Assembly (NCBI GenBank): GCA_016196035.1
Contig: JACPYM010000037.1
Coordinates: 1 to 64,000 of the forward strand
Length of the DNA: 64,000 bases
Reading direction: 5' to 3'
DNA from: Acidobacteriota bacterium
Lineage (GTDB): Bacteria > Acidobacteriota > Blastocatellia > RBC074
Both the position numbers and the translations under genes were made by a program. Below, piece after piece: positions 7,175 through 23,820 of the stretch. Position 1 is the first letter of the stretch. Each line of letters opens with the position of its first letter. The notes beneath the pieces were generated by a model. The model searched no databases, was not told where the DNA came from, and worked only from the letters and a program-made list of their open reading frames with translations.

Positions 7175-7854
7175 ATGCTGCGAATCGATAACCTGATAGA
7201 CGATGAGAAATGTTACGAGAGCGTGCGCCAACTGCGCTGGCCGGACGGGATTCGGTGTGCATGGTGTAAGTCTGACCGTGTAAAAAAACGCGGCTTCCAT
7301 CAACCAACGTCGGCAGGAGCGGCAACGCTATCATTGCAAGGCTTGTAAGCGCGACTTCGATGATCTGACCAACACCGTTTTTGCCGGCCATCATCAACCT
7401 TTACGCAAGTGGGTGTTGTGTCTCTATCTGATGGGACTCAACTTATCGAACCTACAGATCGCACAGGAACTGGACCTCGACAAGGATGACGTCCAGCAGA
7501 TGACGACGCAGTTGCGCAGTGATGTGGTCGAGCGCAAACCCGCGCCCGTCTTGACGGGCGAAGTCGAAAGCGACGAGGTGTACATCGTCGCGGGCCACAA
7601 AGGACATCCGCTGGCCGTCAAAAAAAGGTCGCACCGGACGCCGCCGACGGTTGAAAGGGGAACGCGGACGCGGCACGCTAGCGAAAGAAAAACCGCCCGC
7701 GCGAGGGTTAGTGCAACGCGACGGTCAAGTCGCTATTCAGATGTTGCCCGATGTCAAACAACGCACGATCAAGCCCGTCCACACAGCGACAATCGCGGCG
7801 GGAACGCTGATCTATACCGATGAATACGACATTTACCAGTGCTGCCCGCATTAA
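7175..7854 (+). pseudogene. IS1595-family transposase remnant
   Basis: Translations of three frames together give a typical IS1595/ISXO2-like transposase: LRWPDGIRCAWCKS (zinc-ribbon start), then YHCKACKRDFDDLTNTVFAG, LYLMGLNLSNLQIAQELDL, GEVESDEVYIVAGHKGHP (first catalytic acidic residues), then KGERGRGTLAKEKPPARG and LIYTDEYDIY. Frameshifts fall near 7300-7320 and again near 7625. The C-terminal third of the family is missing, because at about 7830 the sequence switches to an unrelated LamG gene on the other strand. It is not functional. An in-frame GTG at 7169 is an alternative start. Confidence 0.85.
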
Positions 7855-8508
7855 ACAGCGCCAGTACCTCGCCGGTCGTAAGCGCCCGATTGTAAATGCC
7901 CACTTCATCCAATTGCCCACGCCAGTTACGCCCGCCGCCGCCCCACGCGCCTAAGCGCAGGAATTGTGTGCCATCGTAAACAGGCGCTTGTGTGCCGCTG
8001 GCCGGGCCGACTTCCACGCCGTTCACATACACACGCGTGACGCGATTCGCATCCAGCGTCAGCGCCACGTATTGCCAAACATCGGCGGTCAAATTGAACG
8101 TAATGACGGGCTGGATTCCTGCTACGCCCCAGATGTATTGGTTCAACGTGCCGCCATTTTGTTGCAGCACCCAGGCGCGGTTGTCGGTGTGGTTGTTGTC
8201 AATGATGTTGGCGTAGGCGGTTTGCGTCGCGCCCGGTTTGACCCACAGCGCCAGCGTGAACGTCGGCAGATTGAACCACGCGCCCAACTCGATAGCATCG
8301 TCCACACCATCGAAGGTAAACGCCTGTCCGACGCGGCTAGTGTTGAACGTGACGCCATTCCGCAACGTGCCGGGATGCGCGTTCAAGACGTCGTTGGCAT
8401 TGCCTTCACCGCGATACCAACTTACCAAACCCGTCGGAGCAGTGGTGCAGGCTGCCCCGACGTTGATCGTTACGGTCTTGGTGCCACTTACAGCGTTTTC
8501 GGTTTGAG
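7832..8508 (-). pseudogene. LamG/concanavalin-like domain gene fragment
   Basis: A continuous minus-strand frame encodes one LamG-type jelly-roll domain: GLVSWYRGEGNANDV, then FDGVDDAIELG, FTLALWVKP, WQYVALTLDANRVTRVYVNG and GQLDEVGIYNRALTTGEV. In relatives the motif LFNAGSTGKC leads into more domains of a large secreted protein. Here it runs at once into antisense transposase sequence, so the 3' end is lost. The 5' end is cut at 8509 by a small inverted-repeat element. It is a stranded internal piece of a former secreted or cell-surface protein. A longer frame (to 8674) is open but not homologous. Confidence 0.75.
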
Positions 8509-8614
8509 TGTTCAGGCAGAAGAGACGAACCACGGAGGACTGGGAACACGGGAGCAGACTGACCTTGTTTTCCCCGTGCGCCCGCTGCTCCCCGAGGTTG
8601 ATTCTGCCTGAACA
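8509..8614. repeat. 106-bp element with 13-bp terminal inverted repeats
   Basis: TGTTCAGGCAGAA at 8509-8521 is exactly complementary to TTCTGCCTGAACA at 8602-8614. The element separates the LamG fragment from the next IS remnant. No flanking duplication is evident. It is probably a miniature or deleted transposon. Confidence 0.7.
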
Positions 8615-8663
8615 TCCAAGTCGAAACTGCTGTAAGACAGGCGGCGTCCAATCGAATCTGTAA

Positions 8664-9381
8664 ATGCGAATCAAGGGTAAGGGCGCAAACCCAACAGACG
8701 TTGTAGAGTTGGGTTGTGAAACCAGAAAATCAACTCATACAACTCTATCTGTGAGTTTGCGCCGTCTACGATAAGCATCCGACGCTGAAGTATCAACGTT
8801 GGAGCAAGAACACGACCGAACCAGTCTTTACGGACCAGGAAGCGATGACCATCTACCTGTTTGGACATTTGCAAGAGCGCTTCAAAATCAAAGCCATCCA
8901 TGTCTATATCAAGCAGCATTGGAGCGCTTGGTTTCCGCACCTGCCCAGTTATCAAGCTTTCAATCACCGGCGCAATCTGCTGGAGGACGTGTGGCCAGTG
9001 CTGCTCGGCGAGTTGCTGTCCCAAATGGAACTGCCAGCAAAAGAAGCAGTCCTTGTGCCCTTGCCGGGCACCTTATTTGGCGACAAAGCCTACCCCGATC
9101 AGGCGACCAAGCAGGCACTGGCAGCGCGCACGGCACGACGATTTGTACGCCAGACAAGAAAGAGAAAGGTCAGGCCGTCTATCACGTCGGCCAAAGCGGG
9201 TTATGGTCGCGTTTCGTTTCCGCCATGCGCCAGCCAATCGAATCAATCTTCAATTGGCTGGTGGAGAAAACCGGCATTCAGAATGCTGTCAAGGTTCGTT
9301 CCAGTGAAGGCTTGCGAGTTCACTGCCATGGAAAACTGACGGCAGCCTTCTATTTGCTCTGCTTTAACCCTTGATTCGCAT
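8664..9381 (+). mobile_element. IS982-like insertion sequence remnant with intact ends
   Basis: A 718-bp element bounded by the inverted repeat ATGCGAATCAAGGGT (8664-8678) and its complement (9367-9381). It encloses a broken transposase on the plus strand. The transposase stop codon overlaps the right repeat. The flanks show no matching target duplication, so one side may have rearranged. The element is shorter than the roughly 1-kb members of this family. Confidence 0.72.
8760..9374 (+). pseudogene. IS982-like DDE transposase, degenerate
   Basis: The N-terminal part reads FTDQEAMTIYLFGHLQERF and WFPHLPSYQAFNHRRN, typical of IS982-type transposases. The centre is deleted: LVPLPG jumps to FGDKAYPD. 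After a frameshift near 9160 the C-terminus reads RQPIESIFNWLVEKTGIQ and KVRSSEGLRVHCHGKLTAAF. Part of the catalytic region is gone, so the enzyme cannot be active. Confidence 0.7.
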
Positions 9382-9625: not shown

Positions 9626-10414
9626 ATGCGTTTATTGATTCGCTTGCTGCCACTCAGCAACCCCGCTTCTTTGCCGTTGGATAATTACCCCTTAGCCGGA
9701 GTGATCTATCGGTCTGTCGCCAGCGTCGCGCCGGATTACGCCGAGTTTTTGCACGAAGAAGGCTTTGCCGCGCACGTACCCAACAAAGAACCCCGCAGCC
9801 CCGAACACAAACGCTTCAAGTTTTTTGTGTTTTCCCGCCTCGAACAGTCTGGCAAACGTATCGCCAATGGCAGGCAATGGCTCAGCCCGCGTCCGGTAGA
9901 TTGGAAAGTCGCTTCGCCGCTGGACGAACTGATGCAGTTGTTTGCCAGCGGCTTGATTTCACAAGGGACAATTCGCATCGGCGATAAAGCTGGCGGTTGT
10001 GAATTCGAGGTTACAGAGATTATCGAACTCCGTGCGCCGCAGATGCGCCGCGCAGCACATTTCAAAACCTTATCGCCCTTGTTCGTGAGTGTAGATGAGA
10101 GCCGCGCGGATGGCAGCCGGACGAAACAACATCTGCGTGCTGATGACCGCCGCTTTGCCGGGCAAATTCGCGCCAACCTCATCAGAAAATATCAGGCGCT
10201 GACTGGCGCCGAGCCTGCAAATAGCGAATTACACTTTCAATTCGACGGCCCGCCCAAATCTCAATTGGTGCAGTATCGGGAAACGAATCATCACTGTTAC
10301 CTCGGTAATTTCACCGTCAGCGGCAGCGCGGAACTGATTCGTCTCGGTTGGGATTGCGGCTTTGGCGAAGCCAATTCGAAAGGCTTTGGGATGGCCGAAT
10401 ACCTCTTCAAGTAA
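9626..10414 (+). CDS. cas6: CRISPR-associated endoribonuclease Cas6 (orphan)
   Basis: A 262-residue RAMP protein. The N-terminal half matches the family pattern: MRLLIRLLPLSNP, then LAGVIYRSVASVAPDYAEFLHEEGF and RFKFFVFSRLE. The C-terminus has the glycine-rich loop GFGEANSKGFGMAEY. Cas6 enzymes cut pre-crRNA within the repeat. No CRISPR array and no other cas gene are seen in the 64 kb, so the substrate is not local. The stop overlaps the start of the downstream SWIM gene (TAATG), implying co-translation. The upstream flank is a pile of dead IS elements, consistent with acquisition by transfer or with the remains of a lost CRISPR locus. Confidence 0.85.
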   Translation: MRLLIRLLPLSNPASLPLDNYPLAGVIYRSVASVAPDYAEFLHEEGFAAHVPNKEPRSPEHKRFKFFVFSRLEQSGKRIANGRQWLSPRPVDWKVASPLDELMQLFASGLISQGTIRIGDKAGGCEFEVTEIIELRAPQMRRAAHFKTLSPLFVSVDESRADGSRTKQHLRADDRRFAGQIRANLIRKYQALTGAEPANSELHFQFDGPPKSQLVQYRETNHHCYLGNFTVSGSAELIRLGWDCGFGEANSKGFGMAEYLFK

Positions 10415-11739
10415 TGTCAGTGTCAAAACGTCAAAACCATCTGAGACGCCGCTGCCAAAGCGGTGCTACGACTTTTGACCGAGGTGATTTACCATCAACT
10501 ACCCAATCCGCGAGAACCGATTCAACAACCTTCGATCAGACTGACTTGCTCGCCTTGGCTGGGCCGCGTGTTTTCAACCGTGGACAGACATATTTTGAAC
10601 AAGGGCATGTGATCGCGCTGCTGCTATCGAACGAGCAATCGCGTGCTTGGGTGTTCGGCGAAAGGCCATATCGTGTGACGCTGGCTTGCTGCGATAACAG
10701 TTGGCATGCCGAATGCGATTGTCCGATTGGAAAAGGCCGCGGTCTTTGCAAGCACGCCGTGGCATTGGGGCTGGCTTGGTTGCACCGTCACAACGGGCCG
10801 CCCTTAAAAGACGGAAACCGCTTGCTGGAATTCGTCATTCACACCCTAATGAGTTTGGAGCACGCAACAAAGGCCAATGCTGACTGGCTTCAATGCGTGC
10901 AGGTCACACTCGAGAAGTTGCTCGATCAGGGCCAGTTGCGCACAGCCCTCAAATTGATCGAGCAATCTCTGCTGATGCAGGCCGAAGCCCAGCGCTTGCC
11001 GAATGTAAACCTGGTTGAACTTGCGCGCCTGGAAGACATGCTCTGCCAGTTTCACCAAATCGTATGTCAAAGAGACGCCATCTCGCTAGCAACACGCGCG
11101 CGGCGCTTGCTCAAACTGCAACTCGGTCTGGTTGGCGAGGGTATTGCGCTAACTCCGTTTGGCGAAAAGCTAGCCAGGCTGAATGCAGAAGTTTTTGGCA
11201 ACGACTGGGCTGCGGCCTATCAAAAGCAAAGCAAAGAATTTTGGGCAACACTTGCCACGCTCGAAGACGCAAAATTAAATCTGGTGCAACGACGCCAACG
11301 GGTTTGGCTCGCACAAAGTTTGCAAATGCCAACTCCGCAAGCCAGCCATTCTGACCAGGCGACCTTGCCAACTGAAGGCAGCGAGAAGAGCGCAGGAAAT
11401 AGCGACCTTGTGCAAAACTGCTTGGCGGCGGGAAACCTCGAAGCGGCCTGGCAGGCAGCTCAGGCCGGTGGTTGCAGCGATGCGTTATGGCTGAGATTGA
11501 CCTCAATGCGTGCCCGCCAGTATCCGGCAGAGTCTTTGATTGTTTATCAACGCTTGATTCGACGGGCCTGCGACCGCAAAGACGGCTACTCCGCCCAACA
11601 AGCTTTCAAGTTGCTGCCCATCGTGCGCCGCCTCTTGCAACGGTTGAGTCGGATTGAGGAGTTTGACGAATTCGTATCGAGTCTAGTCGAGCGATATGGT
11701 CATCAACGAACCTTCCGCCACCGGCAAAGCGCAAAATAA
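10414..11739 (+). CDS. SWIM zinc-finger protein coupled to cas6
   Basis: A 441-residue protein with a SWIM motif at residues 101-114 (C101, C103, C112, H114; ECDCPIGKGRGLCKH). SWIM domains bind DNA or protein and often sit next to SWI2/SNF2 helicases, but no helicase is nearby. Ahead of it lies the usual pre-SWIM segment FNRGQTYFEQGHVIALLLS. The remaining 320 residues are mainly helical, with no motif I recognise. The chosen start overlaps the cas6 stop (TAATG). Codons 8-22 resemble a common intergenic repeat (CGCTGCCAAAGCGGTGCTAC), so the N-terminus may be recent. Function with Cas6 is unknown. Confidence 0.75.
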   Translation: MSVSKRQNHLRRRCQSGATTFDRGDLPSTTQSARTDSTTFDQTDLLALAGPRVFNRGQTYFEQGHVIALLLSNEQSRAWVFGERPYRVTLACCDNSWHAECDCPIGKGRGLCKHAVALGLAWLHRHNGPPLKDGNRLLEFVIHTLMSLEHATKANADWLQCVQVTLEKLLDQGQLRTALKLIEQSLLMQAEAQRLPNVNLVELARLEDMLCQFHQIVCQRDAISLATRARRLLKLQLGLVGEGIALTPFGEKLARLNAEVFGNDWAAAYQKQSKEFWATLATLEDAKLNLVQRRQRVWLAQSLQMPTPQASHSDQATLPTEGSEKSAGNSDLVQNCLAAGNLEAAWQAAQAGGCSDALWLRLTSMRARQYPAESLIVYQRLIRRACDRKDGYSAQQAFKLLPIVRRLLQRLSRIEEFDEFVSSLVERYGHQRTFRHRQSAK

Positions 11740-11886: not shown

Positions 11887-11962
<76 letters not shown>

Positions 11963-15402: not shown

Positions 15403-18400
15403 TTAGGGGCTAACCGCAAAGGCGTTGGCTTTGACAAGCGTTTCGCCGCTCGGATTGGTGATGATGAGATTGCGCAAGTTGGTCAATGCCGCTGTGGAGA
15501 TCACCACGCGCACATTGAGTTGTGTGGAATTCAAATAGGTTGTCGCGGTGGTGATGCCGCCGCCGCTCAATTGCACTTGTGTGCCCGGCACGAAACCTGT
15601 GCCGGAGAGGGTGATGGTCACCGTTTTCCCCGCTTTCCCCATCGAGGGCGAAACGGATGTGACGCTCAGGCTGGCCGCGTTGTTGGCCAGCACCGTCAGC
15701 TTCTGCGCGTTGGTGGTGCTGACGCCGCCACGGCCATCGCTGACGCGCAACGCCAACAGATGTTCGCCCAGCGGCAAGCGCACCTCGGCAACCGCGCCGC
15801 TGGCAATCGCTGTCCCGCGATCCAGCCAGGTGAAGCTGAGTTGATCGCCCTCCGGATCACTCGAAGCAGAGCCGTCCAATTGCACAGAAGCCTGACCGCT
15901 TTCATTGGCAATCAGCGTGTCAGGCAGCCGGTTGGCCACGGCCACGGGCGGTTGATTATTCAAATTATCAGCCACCGTGAGCGTAAATGGATTGCTGGTG
16001 CTGACGCCGCCGCGTCCATCATTGGCGTTGATGCGCAAGGTGTATAGCGCGGTGTTGTCGCCCGCCGGCGGTGCGATATGCAAGGTTGCCGTGCGCTGGG
16101 CCGAATTGGCTTTGGTTAGCGTGATGAACGCGGGCGCATTTTCCAGCGCAAACGTGACCGGGTCGCCGTCAGCATCGGTGGCGCGGATTTCGACTTCGAT
16201 GGTTTGCCCGCGCACGACCGTTTGGTTGGGAATGGTTTCGATCACAGGCGCGTGATTGCCCACGGTGACCGGCGCCCACGAGAGACGCGCGGCTGCCAAA
16301 CCGCCCGCGTCGTAATGCTCAAACCGCAAGGTATGCAGGCCCGCACTCAATTGCACATCTGCGGTGAAACTGGTTTCGGATTGATCCTTCCATTGGTCAA
16401 GGCGAATGACATCGTCCACATACAAACGCACGCCGTCATCGCCCGTCACGGCAAAGCGATAAACACCGGCGTCGAAATTGACCGCGCGCGTCCAGCGAAT
16501 CGAGAAATTGTCTACCGGCACGTTGCAGGCCGCACTGGGGCTTTCCAATCCAAAACTGAAGTTGAGATTGCCCGCGCCGTCATCGCGCACCAGCACCGGC
16601 GTGCCCTGCAACAAACGGTTGCTGAAGTACTCGCCTTTCCAACGTTCAGCCGGGACGTTCGCCGCACACGACGACGCTTCGTTGACCTTGATCGTAAAGG
16701 CGGCGCTGGGCGTCTTGCCGCCTTTGCTGTCTTCGGCCTGCACGCGCACGTTGTCGAACATCCCCGCCGTCGTGGGCGTGAGCCGCAATGTAGCCGTGCG
16801 TTGCGCCGGATTGGCGTTGACGATGCTGGCGAAGCCGGGCGCGTTGAGCAGCGTGAACGTCACCGGGTCGCCGTCTTCATCGGTGGCGCTGAGCGGCACA
16901 TCCAGCGTTTGGCCGCGCGTCAGGGTTTGCTCGCCCAACGTCGTGGTGATGACGGGCGCGCGATTGGCGGGGCCAGCGGGCGTCAGTTTGCGCACGCGCA
17001 GATTGCCCGCATCGCCGATGAAGACACTGCCATCCGCCGCCACCGTCACGCTGGAGGGCAGGTTCAGCTTGGCTTGTGCTGCCGCGCCGCCATCACCGTC
17101 AAACCCCGCCACGCCATTGCCCGCGATGGTTTTGATCAGGCGGCTCGCGCCATCCACGCGGCGCACGCGGTGGTTGCCTTGATCCACGATGTACAAATTG
17201 CCGTTGCCATCCACGCCGATGTCGGACGGATTGTTGAACTGCGCGTTGGTCGCTGGGCCGTCTTCGCCGCCGAAATTTTGCGTGCCGTCGCCCGCCGCGG
17301 TCGTGATGGTTTTGCTAACGGCATCCACGCGGCGTATGCGCTGATTGCCCCGGTCGGCGATATACAAATTGCCTTGCGCATCAAAGGCCAAGCCGGTCGG
17401 ATTATTCAAGGTGGCTTGGTTGGCCGGGCCGTTGTCGCCGCCGAAGCCCGCGCCGCCATTGCCCGCGTAAGTCGTGATGAGGCCCGTTGCGGCATCCACA
17501 CGGCGTATGCGCTGATTCGCCATGTCCGCGATATAAACGTTGTTCTGGGCGTCCACCGCCAACGCGCCGGGCCGATTCAAGCGCGCCGAAGTCGCCGAGC
17601 CGAAATCGCCGACGCTGCCGCCCACGCCATTCAACGAACCGGCGAAATGCGCGATGCGTCCGTCAGCGCCGATCTTGCGCACGCGATGAAAGACGGAATC
17701 GGAAACATAGATATTGCCCTGGGCATCTTGCGTATTCACAGCCACGGCCGCGCCGCCCGTCGCGCCAAAGCTGGCATAAATCGCCGGGCCATTGTCACCG
17801 CTGTTGGCATTCGCGCCATTGCCTGCCGCCGTGCGAATAACGCCCGGCGTTGCGCCCGCCAGGAAGACGCGGCGCACGTTGCGGCTCTGCGCGTCCACGA
17901 TCAGCAACTGCCCGTCTTTGTCAAAGCTGAGCGCCGTCGTCGAACGCAGTGCTGCCGTAACGGCCAAATCGCCATCGCCGCTGAAACCATACGCGCCATT
18001 GCCCGCAACAGTGGAGATGGTAAACGCTGTAACACCGCCGCCCATGCCGCCGCTGGGCGTGACCGTGATGCGGAACGAAGCGCGCCCGACATTGCCGCGC
18101 GCATCGCGGGCCGTGAAATTGACCGTCGTCGTGCCTACCGGGAACAGCGCGCCAGACGTTGGCTCCGCCGTGACGGCGACATTGCCGTCCACCAAATCGG
18201 TCGCGGTCGGCAAAAGGAATGTCACATTCGCACCGCTCGCTGAAGCGGCTGGCGTCGTGACATCCGCCGGAACGTTGGTGAGCGTGGGCGGCGTGGTGTC
18301 TTGCACGACGACCGTTTGCGCGGGTGTGGAAGTCGTGCCACCTCGATTGTCCGAAACCGCGAGGCGCAGGCTGTGCGTGCCAATACCCAAAATCACCGTG

Positions 18401-21400
18401 GCCGTCGCGCTCGTGGCGATTGGCGTGTTGCCGTCGAACCACGCGAACGTAATGGGGTCGCCGTCAGGGTCGCTGCCGCTGCCACTGAGGGCGACCTGTC
18501 CGCCCGCCGCTGAAGCCGCTTCAAGCGGCGAAGCCACTGCGTTGGCATTGGCCGTCGGTGGGCGGTTGTTGGGCGAAGGTTCGGTGACCGTGACGTTGAA
18601 TGCCGCGCTGTTGGTGAGGCCGCCCTTGCCGTCGCTGGCCTGAATTTGCAGGTTGTTGAACGTGCCCGTTTCAGTCGGTGCGAGCCGCAAGGTCGCCGTG
18701 CGTTGCGGCGGATTGACGTTGATGAGCGTGGCGAAGGCGGGCGCGTTCTGCAACGTGAAGCCCACGCTGTCGTTGTCTTCGTCGCTGGCGCTGACAGCCA
18801 GTTCCAGCGTTTGGCCTTTGACCAGCGTTTGATTGCCGATGTTCGAGGTGAAGACCGGCGCGCGATTGCCCGGCTGGGCGTTGTTATTGGCGATGCGGCG
18901 CACACGCGAGTTGGCGCTGTCGCCGACATACAGATTGCCCAGCGCATCAAACGCCAGGCTGGACGGCATGCTGAATTGCGCCTGCAAGGCCGGGCCGCCA
19001 TCACCAGCGAAGCCTTGCGCGCCTGTGCCCGCGACGGTCTTGATCACTTGGCTGCCCGCGTTGACGCGGCGCACGCGGTGGTTGCCCTGCTCGACGAGGT
19101 AAAGATTGTTATTGCCATCCACTGCGACATCGCTGGGATTGTTCAGCACGGCATTATTCGCCGGGCCGTCATCGCCGCTGAAATCTTGCGCGCCCGTGCC
19201 TGCGATGGTGCTGATGTTTTTGGTCACGGCATCCACGCGGCGAATGCGCTGGTTGTTGCGGTCGGCGATAAAGAGATTGCCTTGCGCGTCGAAGGCCAAG
19301 CCGGTCGGATTGTTCATGCTTGCCAGCGTTGCCGCGCCACCATCGCCACTGAAACTTGCGGAGCCGTTGCCCGCATAAGTCGTGATCGTGTTGGTGCTGA
19401 GGTCTACGCGACGAATGCGGTGATTGCCGGAATCTGCGATGTAAACATTGCCTTGCGCATCCAGCGCGATGGCCGTGGGGCGCGTCAGCCGTGCCGCCGT
19501 GGCCGCGCCGTTATCGCCTTGCGAACCCGAGACGCCCGTCGGCGAACCGGCGAAATGCGCGATGCGTCCGTCGCTGGCGGTAACGCGCCGCACGCGGTGG
19601 AAGCTGGCGTCAGACACATACAGATTTCCCTGCGCGTCCACCGCCACGCCGCCCGGCGCGCCAAAGCTGGCATAGATGCCCAGATTGCCATCACCCGTGT
19701 TGGCGTTCGCGCCATTGCCCGCAACCGAGCGGATGACGCCTTGCGGATTCACCGCGCGCACGTTGCGGCTCAGGCCATCCACAAACAAAACATTGTTGTT
19801 GCGATCCACGCGCAAGGCGCGCGCTTCGCGCAAGGTGGCGTTCGTCGCCGGGCCGTTGTCGCCGCTGGAGCCGGAATTGCCGTTGCCCGCCAGCGTCGTG
19901 ATGTTGCCAAACACCGCTTCAGGTGCAGGGCCGCCGCCGCCCTGATTGACCGTGATGCGAAACGAAGCGCGCCCAATATTGTTGCGCGCATCTTTCGCGG
20001 TGAAATTGACGACGGTGGTGCCGAGCGTGAAGAGCGCACCCGAAGGCGGATCAGCCGTGACCGTGACCGGGCCGTCCACTGCGTCAGTGGCGGTCGGCAA
20101 GGTGAACGTCACGGTTGCGCCGCTGGCCGAAGTCGCGGCTGTCGTCACATCCGCCGGAACGTTGGCGAAGACCGGCGGCGCGGTATCTTGCACGACGACG
20201 GTTTGCGGCGTGGTCGTGGCGCTGGCGTCTTTGGCGTCGGTCGCGCGCAACGTGATGCTGTGCGAACCGAAAGCGAGCGTGACATTGGCCGTCGCCGTCG
20301 TGGCGATGCGCGTTGCGCCGTCGAACCATTGGTATGTGACCGGGTCGCCATCGGGGTCAGTGGCCGTGCCAACCAAAGTGACTTGGCGACCCGCGGGCGA
20401 ATTGGCTTCGAGTGGCGAGCCGAGAGGTTGTGCGCTCACCGTCGGCGCGCGATTCACATCGCTGACCGTCACCGTGAAGCTTTTGGTGTCGGTGGCGTCG
20501 CCATCATTGGCGACGATGGAAATTTGATAGACGCCCGCATCGCTGAAACCGGGCGCGAGTTGCAAGCTGGCCGTGCCATTGTTGGCGGGTGTAAACGTAG
20601 CAAAACTTGGTTTGTTATTGATCGTCAGCGTGAGCGGATCGTTGTTGCCATCGGTGGCGCTGATGTTCACCGTTTGCGTCTGGCCTTCATTGAGCGTGAC
20701 GTTGCTGATGGCCGCCAGCACGGGTGGTTGATTCGGCGTTTGCACCAATCTGCGAATGCGGTTGTTGTTGGTGTCGGTGAACAGCAGCGAATTGTCAGGC
20801 AGCGCCAGCAAGCTGACCGTGTATTGAATATCGAAGTTGCCGGTCGGATTCGGAAAATCCATGCGCGCCCGATTGGCCGCGCCGCCATCGCCGCCAAACC
20901 CGCGCTCGCCCGTGCCCGCCATCAGGCTGACCGTGCCCAGGGCATCGGTGGGCGCAACGATGCGCATGATCTGATTCGTGCCTGAGTTCGTGACGTAAAT
21001 ATTCCCGGCGCTATCGGTGATGACATCGCGCGGACGATTGATGCCGCGCGGCTGATCGGCGATGGCGACAAACGTCGCCCCCGACTGGCGCAAGACGCGA
21101 TTGGCCTTGGTGTCGGCAATCAGCAAACGACCTTGCGAATCAAAGGCAATGCCAGTTGCGCCGTTAGTCGCGAAGGGCGTGTCACCATCCGCGCCCGGCA
21201 CGCGCAAACTTTGAATTACGCCGGTCGCGCCATCCACAATGCGGATGCGGTTGCTGCCCTGATCGGCGATGTAAATGTTGCCTTGCGCGGTGACCGCGAC
21301 ATCGGTGGGGAAGATGACCGCGCGACTGGCCGGGCCGCCATCGCCGATGTTGCCGTTCGTGCCGTAACCGGAATTGGGCACGACATCGTTGACGCCAACC

Positions 21401-23238
21401 AGGTCTTTGATCTGACCGGGCGGCACGCTGATGCTGTTGGCAGGGTTGTTGGGGAAAAGCGTGACCTCGGCGTTCGAGGTGTTCAGAAAGCGGATGTGGC
21501 CGCTGCGGCGTCCGCTGACGGTGTTGGGCGGTTTGATCAGCGCGCCGTATTGCGAATCCACGATGTACAAACCATTGCTGACCGCAAACAGACCTTGCGG
21601 CGATTCGAAACTCGCCGTGATGATGCGGTCGTCATTGCGCTGGATGGTGGCGTTGTTGTTGAGCGTGACGATGTGGCCGGGTTGTACCGTGCGTTCCCAG
21701 GCCGTGCCGCCAAACAGCGTGACAGGCGTCGTGCCGCGATTGACATAACGCAGCAGGCTGATCGGCGACGGCGTCGTGTCGGCGATAAACAGATTGCCTT
21801 GCGTGTCTACGGCAATGCCGGTGGAGCCTTGCAATTCCGAACTCGTCGCCGGGATGTTGTCATACGGCCCTTCCTGTCCGTTGCCAACCACGGTGTTGAT
21901 TTGCTTGGCGCCGATGCTGACGCCCGCGACGGTGACGGATGCATTGCTCAAATTGGCATAGCGCGCCCGCCGGAACAGAAAGTCGGGAATGAACAAGCCG
22001 TTGGCATCGGCGGCAAACGGCACGCTGCGCTGATCGGTGCTGCTCGGCAAGGTGATGTTGGCCGCGAGCGCCAAGCCGCCATCGCCGCAGGTGGGCCGGT
22101 TGAGCTGATCGCAAACCGTGGCGCTGTTGTCACCCACCACGGCGGTCACGGTGCCGTTGGCATCCACCCGCGCGTATTGCTGGCGATTGCCGAGCGCCAC
22201 ATAAATCGTCCCGTTGGGCGCGAGCGTCAGCCCCGTCGGGAAATCCAGCCGCGAGGCGATGGAAGTGATCGTGCCCGCGCCATCAATTTTGCGCACCGCG
22301 CCCGGATTGCGCCGCGCGTCGCCACCCTCGGCAATCAGCAAATTGCCCGCACTGTCAATGATCATGCCCAAGGGGCTGACGATACGCGCTTCGGTCGCCG
22401 CGCCATTGTCGCCATTGCCCGTGCCCGGTTCGCCGCCCCCGGCATACACGCTTTCCTGCCCGGTCGCGCCATCCAGACGCCAGATCACTTTGGTGGTCGA
22501 ATTGATGGTCAGCGTGCTGACATAAAAGAAATCGCGCGTTTGCGGTTTGAAGGCCAGCGCCCGCAGTTCGGGCCGCGCGATGGAAAAAACCTGGCCGATC
22601 ATGCCCGGCGCGGTCGTCGCGCCAAAAAAGGTGAGACTTTGCGTGCCGACGTTGATCACGCGAATCGCATTGACCAGCGGCGTGCAGATGTAAACAGCAT
22701 TGCCCGACGGGTCTACGACCAGGCCCGTCACCAGCGATAAATCCACTTCGCGCGCCATGCCGAGTTCCGGTACCGCGCCGCTGCCCGCGACCAAGCCGAT
22801 TTGTCCCGGCGGAATCGTCGCGCCCGCCAGTGTGACCGCGTTGGCGGTGGTATTGACGAAGCGCAACAGGCTGGAATTGTTGACTTCGTCCACCACATAA
22901 AAGCCGCGCCCCAACGGGTCGAGTGCCGTGGCCGAAGGGTAAACCATCGGCGCCTCGCGCGGCGGCACGTTGTTGGAAAAGCCGCCGCCCGCAATCGTCG
23001 AAATGATCGTGCGCGCCCCCACGCCGCCTTGTACCGGGGCGGCCAAGCCAAAGGCCGTCCCTATGCGCGCCAGGAAACCTGACACTTGTGTTTCCATCGC
23101 CGCTGCCTGGTGTGTTTGCCAAACAGCGCCGCCCACGCCGAGAGCGAGCAAAGTCAGAGTGAACCCCAACCGGCGTTGCAAACGGGAAAGCAGGTGAGGC
23201 ACAGACACGCGTGGTCGCAGGTGAGGAAAACGATTCAT
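15403..23238 (-). CDS. giant secreted NHL-repeat/HYR/PA14/TIG protein
   Basis: A 2,611-residue protein with an N-terminal signal-like helix (GFTLTLLALGVGGAVW, then HQAAA). Domain order from the N-terminus: a long NHL/SO-type propeller block (about 20.7-23.0 kb); a cadherin-like/Ig domain and a HYR domain (NVPADVTTAATSASGATVTF, 19.9-20.2 kb); NHL block 2 (18.9-19.9 kb); Ig-like and HYR 2 (18.0-18.8 kb); NHL block 3 (16.95-18.0 kb); Ig-like; a PA14 lectin-like domain (WKGEYFSNRLLQG, DNFSIRWTR, DGVRLYVDD; 16.26-16.68 kb); two Ig/PKD-like domains; and a C-terminal IPT/TIG domain. The start at 23238 follows AGGAG by 7 bases; an upstream ATG at 23292 lacks this. It is probably an extracellular binding or adhesion protein. 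No enzyme motif was found. Confidence 0.9.
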   Translation of the reverse strand: MNRFPHLRPRVSVPHLLSRLQRRLGFTLTLLALGVGGAVWQTHQAAAMETQVSGFLARIGTAFGLAAPVQGGVGARTIISTIAGGGFSNNVPPREAPMVYPSATALDPLGRGFYVVDEVNNSSLLRFVNTTANAVTLAGATIPPGQIGLVAGSGAVPELGMAREVDLSLVTGLVVDPSGNAVYICTPLVNAIRVINVGTQSLTFFGATTAPGMIGQVFSIARPELRALAFKPQTRDFFYVSTLTINSTTKVIWRLDGATGQESVYAGGGEPGTGNGDNGAATEARIVSPLGMIIDSAGNLLIAEGGDARRNPGAVRKIDGAGTITSIASRLDFPTGLTLAPNGTIYVALGNRQQYARVDANGTVTAVVGDNSATVCDQLNRPTCGDGGLALAANITLPSSTDQRSVPFAADANGLFIPDFLFRRARYANLSNASVTVAGVSIGAKQINTVVGNGQEGPYDNIPATSSELQGSTGIAVDTQGNLFIADTTPSPISLLRYVNRGTTPVTLFGGTAWERTVQPGHIVTLNNNATIQRNDDRIITASFESPQGLFAVSNGLYIVDSQYGALIKPPNTVSGRRSGHIRFLNTSNAEVTLFPNNPANSISVPPGQIKDLVGVNDVVPNSGYGTNGNIGDGGPASRAVIFPTDVAVTAQGNIYIADQGSNRIRIVDGATGVIQSLRVPGADGDTPFATNGATGIAFDSQGRLLIADTKANRVLRQSGATFVAIADQPRGINRPRDVITDSAGNIYVTNSGTNQIMRIVAPTDALGTVSLMAGTGERGFGGDGGAANRARMDFPNPTGNFDIQYTVSLLALPDNSLLFTDTNNNRIRRLVQTPNQPPVLAAISNVTLNEGQTQTVNISATDGNNDPLTLTINNKPSFATFTPANNGTASLQLAPGFSDAGVYQISIVANDGDATDTKSFTVTVSDVNRAPTVSAQPLGSPLEANSPAGRQVTLVGTATDPDGDPVTYQWFDGATRIATTATANVTLAFGSHSITLRATDAKDASATTTPQTVVVQDTAPPVFANVPADVTTAATSASGATVTFTLPTATDAVDGPVTVTADPPSGALFTLGTTVVNFTAKDARNNIGRASFRITVNQGGGGPAPEAVFGNITTLAGNGNSGSSGDNGPATNATLREARALRVDRNNNVLFVDGLSRNVRAVNPQGVIRSVAGNGANANTGDGNLGIYASFGAPGGVAVDAQGNLYVSDASFHRVRRVTASDGRIAHFAGSPTGVSGSQGDNGAATAARLTRPTAIALDAQGNVYIADSGNHRIRRVDLSTNTITTYAGNGSASFSGDGGAATLASMNNPTGLAFDAQGNLFIADRNNQRIRRVDAVTKNISTIAGTGAQDFSGDDGPANNAVLNNPSDVAVDGNNNLYLVEQGNHRVRRVNAGSQVIKTVAGTGAQGFAGDGGPALQAQFSMPSSLAFDALGNLYVGDSANSRVRRIANNNAQPGNRAPVFTSNIGNQTLVKGQTLELAVSASDEDNDSVGFTLQNAPAFATLINVNPPQRTATLRLAPTETGTFNNLQIQASDGKGGLTNSAAFNVTVTEPSPNNRPPTANANAVASPLEAASAAGGQVALSGSGSDPDGDPITFAWFDGNTPIATSATATVILGIGTHSLRLAVSDNRGGTTSTPAQTVVVQDTTPPTLTNVPADVTTPAASASGANVTFLLPTATDLVDGNVAVTAEPTSGALFPVGTTTVNFTARDARGNVGRASFRITVTPSGGMGGGVTAFTISTVAGNGAYGFSGDGDLAVTAALRSTTALSFDKDGQLLIVDAQSRNVRRVFLAGATPGVIRTAAGNGANANSGDNGPAIYASFGATGGAAVAVNTQDAQGNIYVSDSVFHRVRKIGADGRIAHFAGSLNGVGGSVGDFGSATSARLNRPGALAVDAQNNVYIADMANQRIRRVDAATGLITTYAGNGGAGFGGDNGPANQATLNNPTGLAFDAQGNLYIADRGNQRIRRVDAVSKTITTAAGDGTQNFGGEDGPATNAQFNNPSDIGVDGNGNLYIVDQGNHRVRRVDGASRLIKTIAGNGVAGFDGDGGAAAQAKLNLPSSVTVAADGSVFIGDAGNLRVRKLTPAGPANRAPVITTTLGEQTLTRGQTLDVPLSATDEDGDPVTFTLLNAPGFASIVNANPAQRTATLRLTPTTAGMFDNVRVQAEDSKGGKTPSAAFTIKVNEASSCAANVPAERWKGEYFSNRLLQGTPVLVRDDGAGNLNFSFGLESPSAACNVPVDNFSIRWTRAVNFDAGVYRFAVTGDDGVRLYVDDVIRLDQWKDQSETSFTADVQLSAGLHTLRFEHYDAGGLAAARLSWAPVTVGNHAPVIETIPNQTVVRGQTIEVEIRATDADGDPVTFALENAPAFITLTKANSAQRTATLHIAPPAGDNTALYTLRINANDGRGGVSTSNPFTLTVADNLNNQPPVAVANRLPDTLIANESGQASVQLDGSASSDPEGDQLSFTWLDRGTAIASGAVAEVRLPLGEHLLALRVSDGRGGVSTTNAQKLTVLANNAASLSVTSVSPSMGKAGKTVTITLSGTGFVPGTQVQLSGGGITTATTYLNSTQLNVRVVISTAALTNLRNLIITNPSGETLVKANAFAVSP

Positions 23239-23820
23239 GCAAAAACTCCTAGCGGACAGGACTACCAGGCGACGCCGGGCGTTGCGGAACAATTAATTCG
23301 GGTAATTCAGGCGGGGCTAGCAAGCGGGGTGTTCTTTGCCAGTAGCAGCGGTCAGCCAGTTCGTAGGAGAAAATCCGCCGGGATTTTCAGCAAAATAAAG
23401 CCGTGGGATCAATCAGAACGCCGTACCAGTCATTTACCAAACCCGGACACCAAACTCATTCGCCAAACACCAATGCAAGTCACTCTCTCGGTTCGTAACG
23501 TTTGCTTACTTTGCATCGTTGACCGGTGACGGGCCGGTGACAGGATGACGGGATGTGCCGATGCAAACCAGGGGTCAAATTTGTTGTGGTGCAGGGGTCT
23601 GAGGTTCGCCACAACGGCGGCCATTCAAGCGCATGTCCCAAGCGCAAGTCAAGTCATGTTTCTGCTTGATTTTACGGCTTTTGGACAAACATAAGATTAA
23701 TTTGGGGACGATTACACAGACATGGCTGAACACTCTAAAAACGATGGTATTGCTCGACAAGCTGGCCTGCAATGATTTAACAAAGATAGACCTTCCTGGG
23801 AAGTTCACCATAGCTTGCAG
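23239..23820. other. 580-bp intergenic region
   Basis: It lies between the start of the giant NHL gene and the original stop of the HerA gene. It should hold the NHL gene promoter and leader. Small open frames exist on both strands but lack ribosome sites and family features. No repeat or RNA gene was recognised. Confidence 0.4.

What the first reader, a model, noticed from the sequence alone, without database searches (positions are those of the whole stretch)
9626..11739. Orphan cas6 translationally coupled to a SWIM zinc-finger gene, with no CRISPR array in view
Cas6 is complete, including the glycine-rich C-terminal loop, yet the window has no repeats array and no other cas gene. The following gene starts inside the cas6 stop codon (TAATG) and encodes a 441-residue SWIM protein with no helicase partner. 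SWIM proteins are not standard CRISPR partners. A Cas6-SWIM unit could process RNA from arrays elsewhere, or could have been recruited for another RNA. The flanks (two dead IS elements, a LamG fragment, a tRNA gene) point to a transferred or rearranged segment.
Basis: partly seen in the sequence, partly recalled or inferred. Interest (0 to 1): 0.74.

Follow-up and report, generated by a model that had tools for sequence, protein, structure and literature searches.

The report
Stand-alone CRISPR Cas6 beside SWIM gene
A bacterium carries one stand-alone gene for a CRISPR RNA-cutting enzyme far from its two type III CRISPR operons, neither of which was found to have such a gene, and the zinc-finger gene beside it belongs to a broad family whose members also sit inside type III operons of related bacteria, so the pair is most likely a detached piece of that defence system, not a new one.

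Summary
Window 9626-10414 encodes an intact Cas6 (TIGR01877, 113 bits; predicted fold Z 29.8 to P. furiosus Cas6; Tyr28 and His43 match its catalytic Tyr31 and His46). It overlaps by one base an open frame for a SWIM protein (CxCx8CxH), with no array or other cas gene nearby. But Cas6 is not orphan in its genome: searching the 9.6-Mb assembly found a type I-E operon with its own Cas6e and array, plus two type III operons (one III-D) near which no cas6 or array was found. This is the only TIGR01877 Cas6 in the assembly. Best reading: it matures crRNA for those type III systems in trans; no matching array was found. Cas6-SWIM adjacency is not conserved at 46 other cas6 loci; in one relative a small SWIM gene and cas6 flank the same array. 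However, three type III loci in the class carry a SWIM gene directly 3' of a membrane CARF gene, and the Cas6 proteins of those genomes are among the window Cas6's nearest relatives. So a link between SWIM and type III CRISPR is plausible and partly new. 'Translational coupling' is doubtful: the first ~38 SWIM residues have no homologues and are predicted disordered.

The parts
9626..10414 (+). cas6, 262 aa, intact (Cas6 of the P. furiosus type)
9707..9709 (+). Tyr28 codon, aligned with catalytic Tyr31 of P. furiosus Cas6
   Evidence: invariant in 8 class homologues
9752..9754 (+). His43 codon, aligned with catalytic His46 of P. furiosus Cas6
   Evidence: invariant in 8 class homologues
10358..10396 (+). 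C-terminal glycine-rich loop GFGEANSKGFGMA
10414..11739 (+). SWIM-domain gene, 441 aa if started at the ATG inside the cas6 stop (TAATG)
10414..10527 (+). first 38 codons of the SWIM frame: no homology, predicted disordered; perhaps not the native 5' end
10537..10794 (+). SWIM domain (residues 42-127); zinc motif CDCPIGKGRGLCKH at 10714-10755
11392..11715 (+). C-terminal helical region (residues 327-434) shared with 570-630-aa SWIM proteins of the class
8664..9381 (.). decayed IS with 15-bp terminal inverted repeats ATGCGAATCAAGGGT
7769..8674 (-). laminin-G-like (LamG) gene fragment
11888..11962 (-). tRNA-Asn(gtt), edge of the segment conserved in the family

Best explanation
The window carries the stand-alone crRNA-processing gene of a type III CRISPR system, together with a SWIM gene. 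Cas6 most likely cuts pre-crRNA within repeats ending in (A/C)TGAAAC-like ends and supplies guides in trans to the two type III effector operons of this genome (C42: type III-D with a Card1-like protein and a membrane CARF protein; C113: a second type III operon with a 4TM effector), near which no cas6 was found. SWIM is most likely an accessory of the type III arm: in three relatives a SWIM gene follows a membrane CARF gene at a type III locus, and it may act as a zinc-dependent nucleic-acid- or protein-binding adaptor. Shown: intact Cas6, sole TIGR01877 Cas6 of the assembly, type III operons without a cas6 found nearby, the SWIM-CARF adjacency in three relatives. Inferred: in-trans processing, the target repeat, any SWIM function. 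The confidence is for the Cas6 part; I hold the SWIM part at about 0.3.
For: Cas6: Y28, H43 invariant; model pLDDT 91; Z 29.8, rmsd 1.7 to 3i4h. Only TIGR01877 Cas6 in the genome. Two type III operons, no cas6 or array found in the stretches held. I-E operon with its own Cas6e and a different repeat. Cas6 tree: window groups (support 0.945) with the Cas6 of G153 (array plus III-D) and two of G011 (one directly behind an array); the G153 and G011 repeats share ATCGAACC...GAGGAA(T/C)TGAAAC. SWIM directly 3' of membrane CARF (CARF8 clade) in L063, L073, L211, 11-112 bp apart, same strand. About 40 SWIM genes were found in 162 class genomes and three besides the window lie at type III loci; with a rough guessed expectation of 0.1-0.3 the Poisson tail is about 1e-4 to 4e-3.
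Against: Cas6-SWIM adjacency is not conserved. The window SWIM belongs to the broad SWIM family, not demonstrably to the same branch as the CARF-linked ones (tree unresolved), and a near relative of the L211 SWIM (L027) has no CRISPR in the 3.3 kb held. The SWIM frame lacks about 150 internal residues of its longer relatives and may be decaying. Expression was not tested.
Confidence: 0.5

Rival explanations
1. Relic: the pair is the leftover of a lost CRISPR locus; cas6 is still intact but has no array to process, and the SWIM gene came to lie behind it by deletion or rearrangement between an IS and a tRNA gene.
For: No array found; decayed IS and gene fragment upstream; left side of tRNA-Asn not conserved, right side conserved in the family; SWIM N-terminus without homology.
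Against: Both frames are open over 700 codons and Cas6 keeps all residues invariant among eight homologues; two type III operons in the genome would need a processing enzyme.
Confidence: 0.35
2. Coincidence of neighbours: Cas6 serves the type III systems, while SWIM is an unrelated chromosomal gene of a common family that happens to lie behind it. (This overlaps with the best explanation on Cas6 and differs only on SWIM, so the confidences do not add to one.)
For: The same SWIM family occurs in many places without CRISPR; the 5' end of the frame is not conserved; the full-length relatives closest by BLAST are not CRISPR-linked.
Against: SWIM genes occur at type III loci in three class genomes, and in one (G153) SWIM and cas6 flank the same array.
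Confidence: 0.4
3. A dedicated Cas6-SWIM unit recruited for a non-CRISPR RNA, with SWIM as its RNA- or protein-binding partner.
For: One-base overlap of the two frames; no array in the window.
Against: Pair not conserved at 46 other cas6 loci; type III operons that lack a nearby cas6 give a simpler role; nearest Cas6 relatives include CRISPR-linked ones.
Confidence: 0.05

Closest known systems
Cas6 of Pyrococcus furiosus (3i4h, 3pkm) and the 5yi6 Cas6
   Same: Fold over the whole length (Z 27.8-29.8), Tyr and His catalytic residues aligned, glycine-rich loop
   Different: About 27-28% identity; gene stands alone with no array or cas operon beside it
G153 type III-D locus of a relative in the same family (L063)
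   Same: Cas6 in the same clade; a small SWIM gene nearby; type III operon related to the window genome's C42 operon (33-42% identity)
   Different: There SWIM (108 aa) precedes the array and cas6 follows it; array and operon are adjacent
Membrane CARF-SWIM gene pairs in type III loci (L063, L073, L211)
   Same: SWIM gene tied to type III CRISPR
   Different: In the window SWIM follows cas6 rather than a membrane CARF gene
PADLOC candidate PDC-S62 (SWIM protein)
   Same: N-terminal SWIM region matches (1.2e-23)
   Different: Window protein is 441 aa against a 566-position profile; best stretch covers positions 4-95
CRISPR adaptation-linked SWIM module reported by FLSHclust (PMC10910872, Fig. 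6B legend)
   Same: SWIM domain linked to CRISPR loci
   Different: Listed with adaptation modules, not with cas6; the exact module was not readable here

Membership tests
Cas6 endoribonuclease | Family profile above curated cut-off | tested here: met
   TIGR01877 113.2 bits against 58.65
Cas6 endoribonuclease | Cas6 fold | tested here: met
   AlphaFold2 pLDDT 91; Z 29.8, rmsd 1.7 to 3i4h over 223 residues
Cas6 endoribonuclease | Catalytic Tyr and His of the P. furiosus type | tested here: met
   Y28 and H43 align with Y31 and H46; the lysine could not be placed
Cas6 endoribonuclease | Cleaves CRISPR repeat RNA | not testable with these tools
   no biochemistry
Type III CRISPR system (in trans) | Cas10-containing operon in the same genome | tested here: met
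   C42 and C113
Type III CRISPR system (in trans) | CRISPR array with a repeat of the Cas6 type | tested here: inconclusive
   pattern searches found none; assembly in 139 contigs, only chosen repeat shapes tested, not all sequence read
SWIM zinc-finger protein | CxCx(n)CxH motif | tested here: met
   CDCPIGKGRGLCKH; the Cys and His are invariant in the alignment of 14
SWIM zinc-finger protein | Pfam PF04434 above cut-off | tested here: not met
   14.9 bits against 19.6; PADLOC PDC-S62 and relatives do match
Type III accessory (membrane CARF-SWIM pair) | SWIM directly 3' of a membrane CARF gene | tested here: not met
   window SWIM follows cas6; the genome's own membrane CARF gene (C42) has no SWIM beside it

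The most novel reading that the evidence does not exclude
SWIM proteins are a previously undescribed accessory of type III CRISPR signalling that works with membrane CARF effectors, and in this genome the SWIM gene has moved to the stand-alone cas6, making a split system with processing and accessory genes far from the effector operon.
Probability: 0.2. Interest if true: 0.65.

Novelty: new variant of a known kind. Interest (0 to 1): 0.42.

Why it matters
If right, it gives a natural example of a type III system whose crRNA nuclease is encoded apart from its effector operons, and it points to SWIM zinc-finger proteins next to membrane CARF proteins as a testable new partner in type III signalling. 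If wrong, it is an intact leftover Cas6 next to an ordinary SWIM gene.

Tried and rejected
A lone ATTGAAAC 190 bp upstream of cas6 looked like a repeat end; its 36-mer matches relatives' repeats no better than shuffled DNA and its 25-base core has no second copy in the genome within 3 mismatches. No att-type direct repeat of the tRNA-Asn 3' end (longest match 13 bp). Triple-GAAAC pattern hits in the genome were fewer than in the reversed control, and the array finder flagged only two of the places fetched; the one I read (C50) is a tandem repeat without variable spacers, the other (C52) I did not read. Viral contigs gave two short partial matches only. The genome-contig scan gave one SWIM relative without CRISPR nearby. 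The SWIM-domain tree is unresolved for the window and G153 proteins. A Foldseek search with the SWIM model gave nothing under E 0.001; the best hit is ZSWIM8, weak. Membrane CARF relatives on three cyanobacterial plasmids have no SWIM annotated within 9 kb. A short Cas1 match on C111 was not explained. No paper holding 'SWIM zinc finger', 'phage' and 'defense' together was found.

Full report
Observation. The window holds an intact cas6 at 9626-10414 (+) and, starting with the ATG inside its stop codon, a 441-codon frame to 11739. Cas6 is beyond doubt: TIGR01877 113 bits, Pfam Cas6_C 97 bits, PADLOC Cas6b 186 bits; an AlphaFold2 model with mean pLDDT 91 superposes on P. furiosus Cas6 with Z 29.8 and rmsd 1.7 over 223 residues. 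Tyr28 and His43, which align with catalytic Tyr31 and His46 of P. furiosus Cas6 (catalytic roles from general knowledge), are invariant in eight class homologues, as is much of the glycine-rich loop. The catalytic lysine could not be placed (model confidence is low there). The second protein has the SWIM motif CDCPIGKGRGLCKH and matches PADLOC PDC-S62 at 1.2e-23, but Pfam SWIM stays below its cut-off.

No array or other cas gene nearby. The repeat finder, a simple array finder and Rfam found no CRISPR in the window, nor the array finder in the rest of this contig (C37). The cas1, RAMP and Cas6 family searches gave no other hit on C37.

Not an orphan at genome scale. The genome is 9.6 Mb in 139 contigs, 97% complete. 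It has a type I-E operon (Cas3, Cas8e, Cas11e, Cas7e, Cas5e, Cas6e, Cas1e) with an array at a contig edge, and two type III operons: C42 (Cas10d, Cas5 and Cas7 of III-D, a Card1-like protein, a membrane CARF protein and another CARF protein) and C113 (Cas10, Cas7 fusions, 4TM effector). No array was found in the stretches held around them (28 kb of C113, 40 kb of C42), and the genome-wide search returned no TIGR01877 Cas6 other than the window's. A divergent Cas6 below that search's threshold cannot be excluded.

What Cas6 probably does. In a tree of 28 Cas6 proteins, the window's groups with support 0.945 with the Cas6 of G153 (same family; array and type III-D operon adjacent) and two G011 Cas6 proteins, one directly behind an array and one with no CRISPR or cas genes seen nearby; next, with support 0.864, come the Cas6 of G156 and G025, each beside what looks by eye like a type I operon. 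Stand-alone cas6 is therefore nothing unusual in this group. Repeats at G153 and G011 share ATCGAACC...GAGGAA(T/C)TGAAAC. The simplest reading is processing in trans for the type III operons. That step is inference: no fitting array was found.

SWIM and type III. I scanned 133 held loci (1.85 Mb: cas6 loci, type III loci and a few SWIM controls) with a SWIM profile built from class proteins. Apart from four loci fetched as SWIM controls (L287-L290), hits fell in three loci, L063 (G153), L073 (G156) and L211 (G025), and in each the SWIM gene lies 10-112 bp downstream of a membrane CARF gene on the same strand. These are not independent discoveries by the scan: all three SWIM genes were already in the class-wide SWIM search, L073 was fetched for its SWIM hit, and L211 was fetched after I noticed that its SWIM and RAMP hits lay close. 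The profile also contains L063 and L073. Eight membrane CARF genes of this kind were found in the class loci; three have SWIM. A rough Poisson estimate puts the chance of three or more SWIM genes at type III loci at about 1e-4 to 4e-3, with the expected number guessed from locus sizes after seeing the cases, so it is indicative only. Counter-evidence: a close relative of the L211 SWIM (L027) has no CRISPR in the 3.3 kb held, and the SWIM tree does not place the window protein with the CARF-linked ones. On one cyanobacterial plasmid (Euhalothece) a SWIM gene lies 3.8 kb from a type III-B cas10. A published screen lists SWIM among domains linked to CRISPR adaptation modules (PMC10910872); a type III effector survey does not mention SWIM in its main text (PMC11229360).

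Coupling. Relatives of the SWIM protein begin near window residue 36; residues 1-38 are unaligned in nearly all of them and predicted disordered, and about 150 internal residues of the longer relatives are missing. The TAATG overlap may thus be a by-product of rearrangement.

Surroundings. Upstream is a decayed IS (8664-9381, 15-bp terminal inverted repeats) and a LamG gene fragment. To the right, tRNA-Asn with ccp, or with tRNA-Ala and the UDG and MscS-like genes, is conserved in several family members, but no window gene left of the tRNA was found beside it in them, which fits a variable locus at the tRNA 3' end; no att repeat was found.

Verdict. Real, well-preserved, but mostly ordinary: a stand-alone Cas6 in a genome whose type III operons have none nearby. 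The SWIM link to membrane CARF genes is the interesting part and deserves a wide census.

Noticed in passing
L063 11479-12599, L073 8905-11430, L211 12936-14898: SWIM gene directly 3' of a membrane CARF gene (CARF8 clade) in three type III loci of the class.
   Followed up: partly
L295 7995-16580 (Euhalothece plasmid pEu1): 600-aa SWIM gene 3.8 kb upstream of a type III-B cas10 on a cyanobacterial plasmid.
   Followed up: no
G000:C42:8401-21284 and G146:C624 (L222): Type III-D operon shared within the genus (one Cas7 protein 82% identical); no array or cas6 found in the stretches held.
   Followed up: partly
G000:C113:61563-62495 (L092 1563-2495): A gene matching PADLOC 4TM effectors (1.5e-97) directly upstream of a type III cas10.
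   Followed up: no
G000:C111:48480-48668: Short Cas1 match (57 bits, 58 profile positions) in a 134-aa frame; no CRISPR locus seen nearby.
   Followed up: partly
L065 8967-9869 (G011:C76): Another stand-alone cas6 with no array or recognisable cas gene seen in the stretch examined.
   Followed up: no
window 15403-23292: 2629-aa repetitive protein on the minus strand, conserved next to the tRNA-Asn/tRNA-Ala region in family members (50-54% identity).
   Followed up: no
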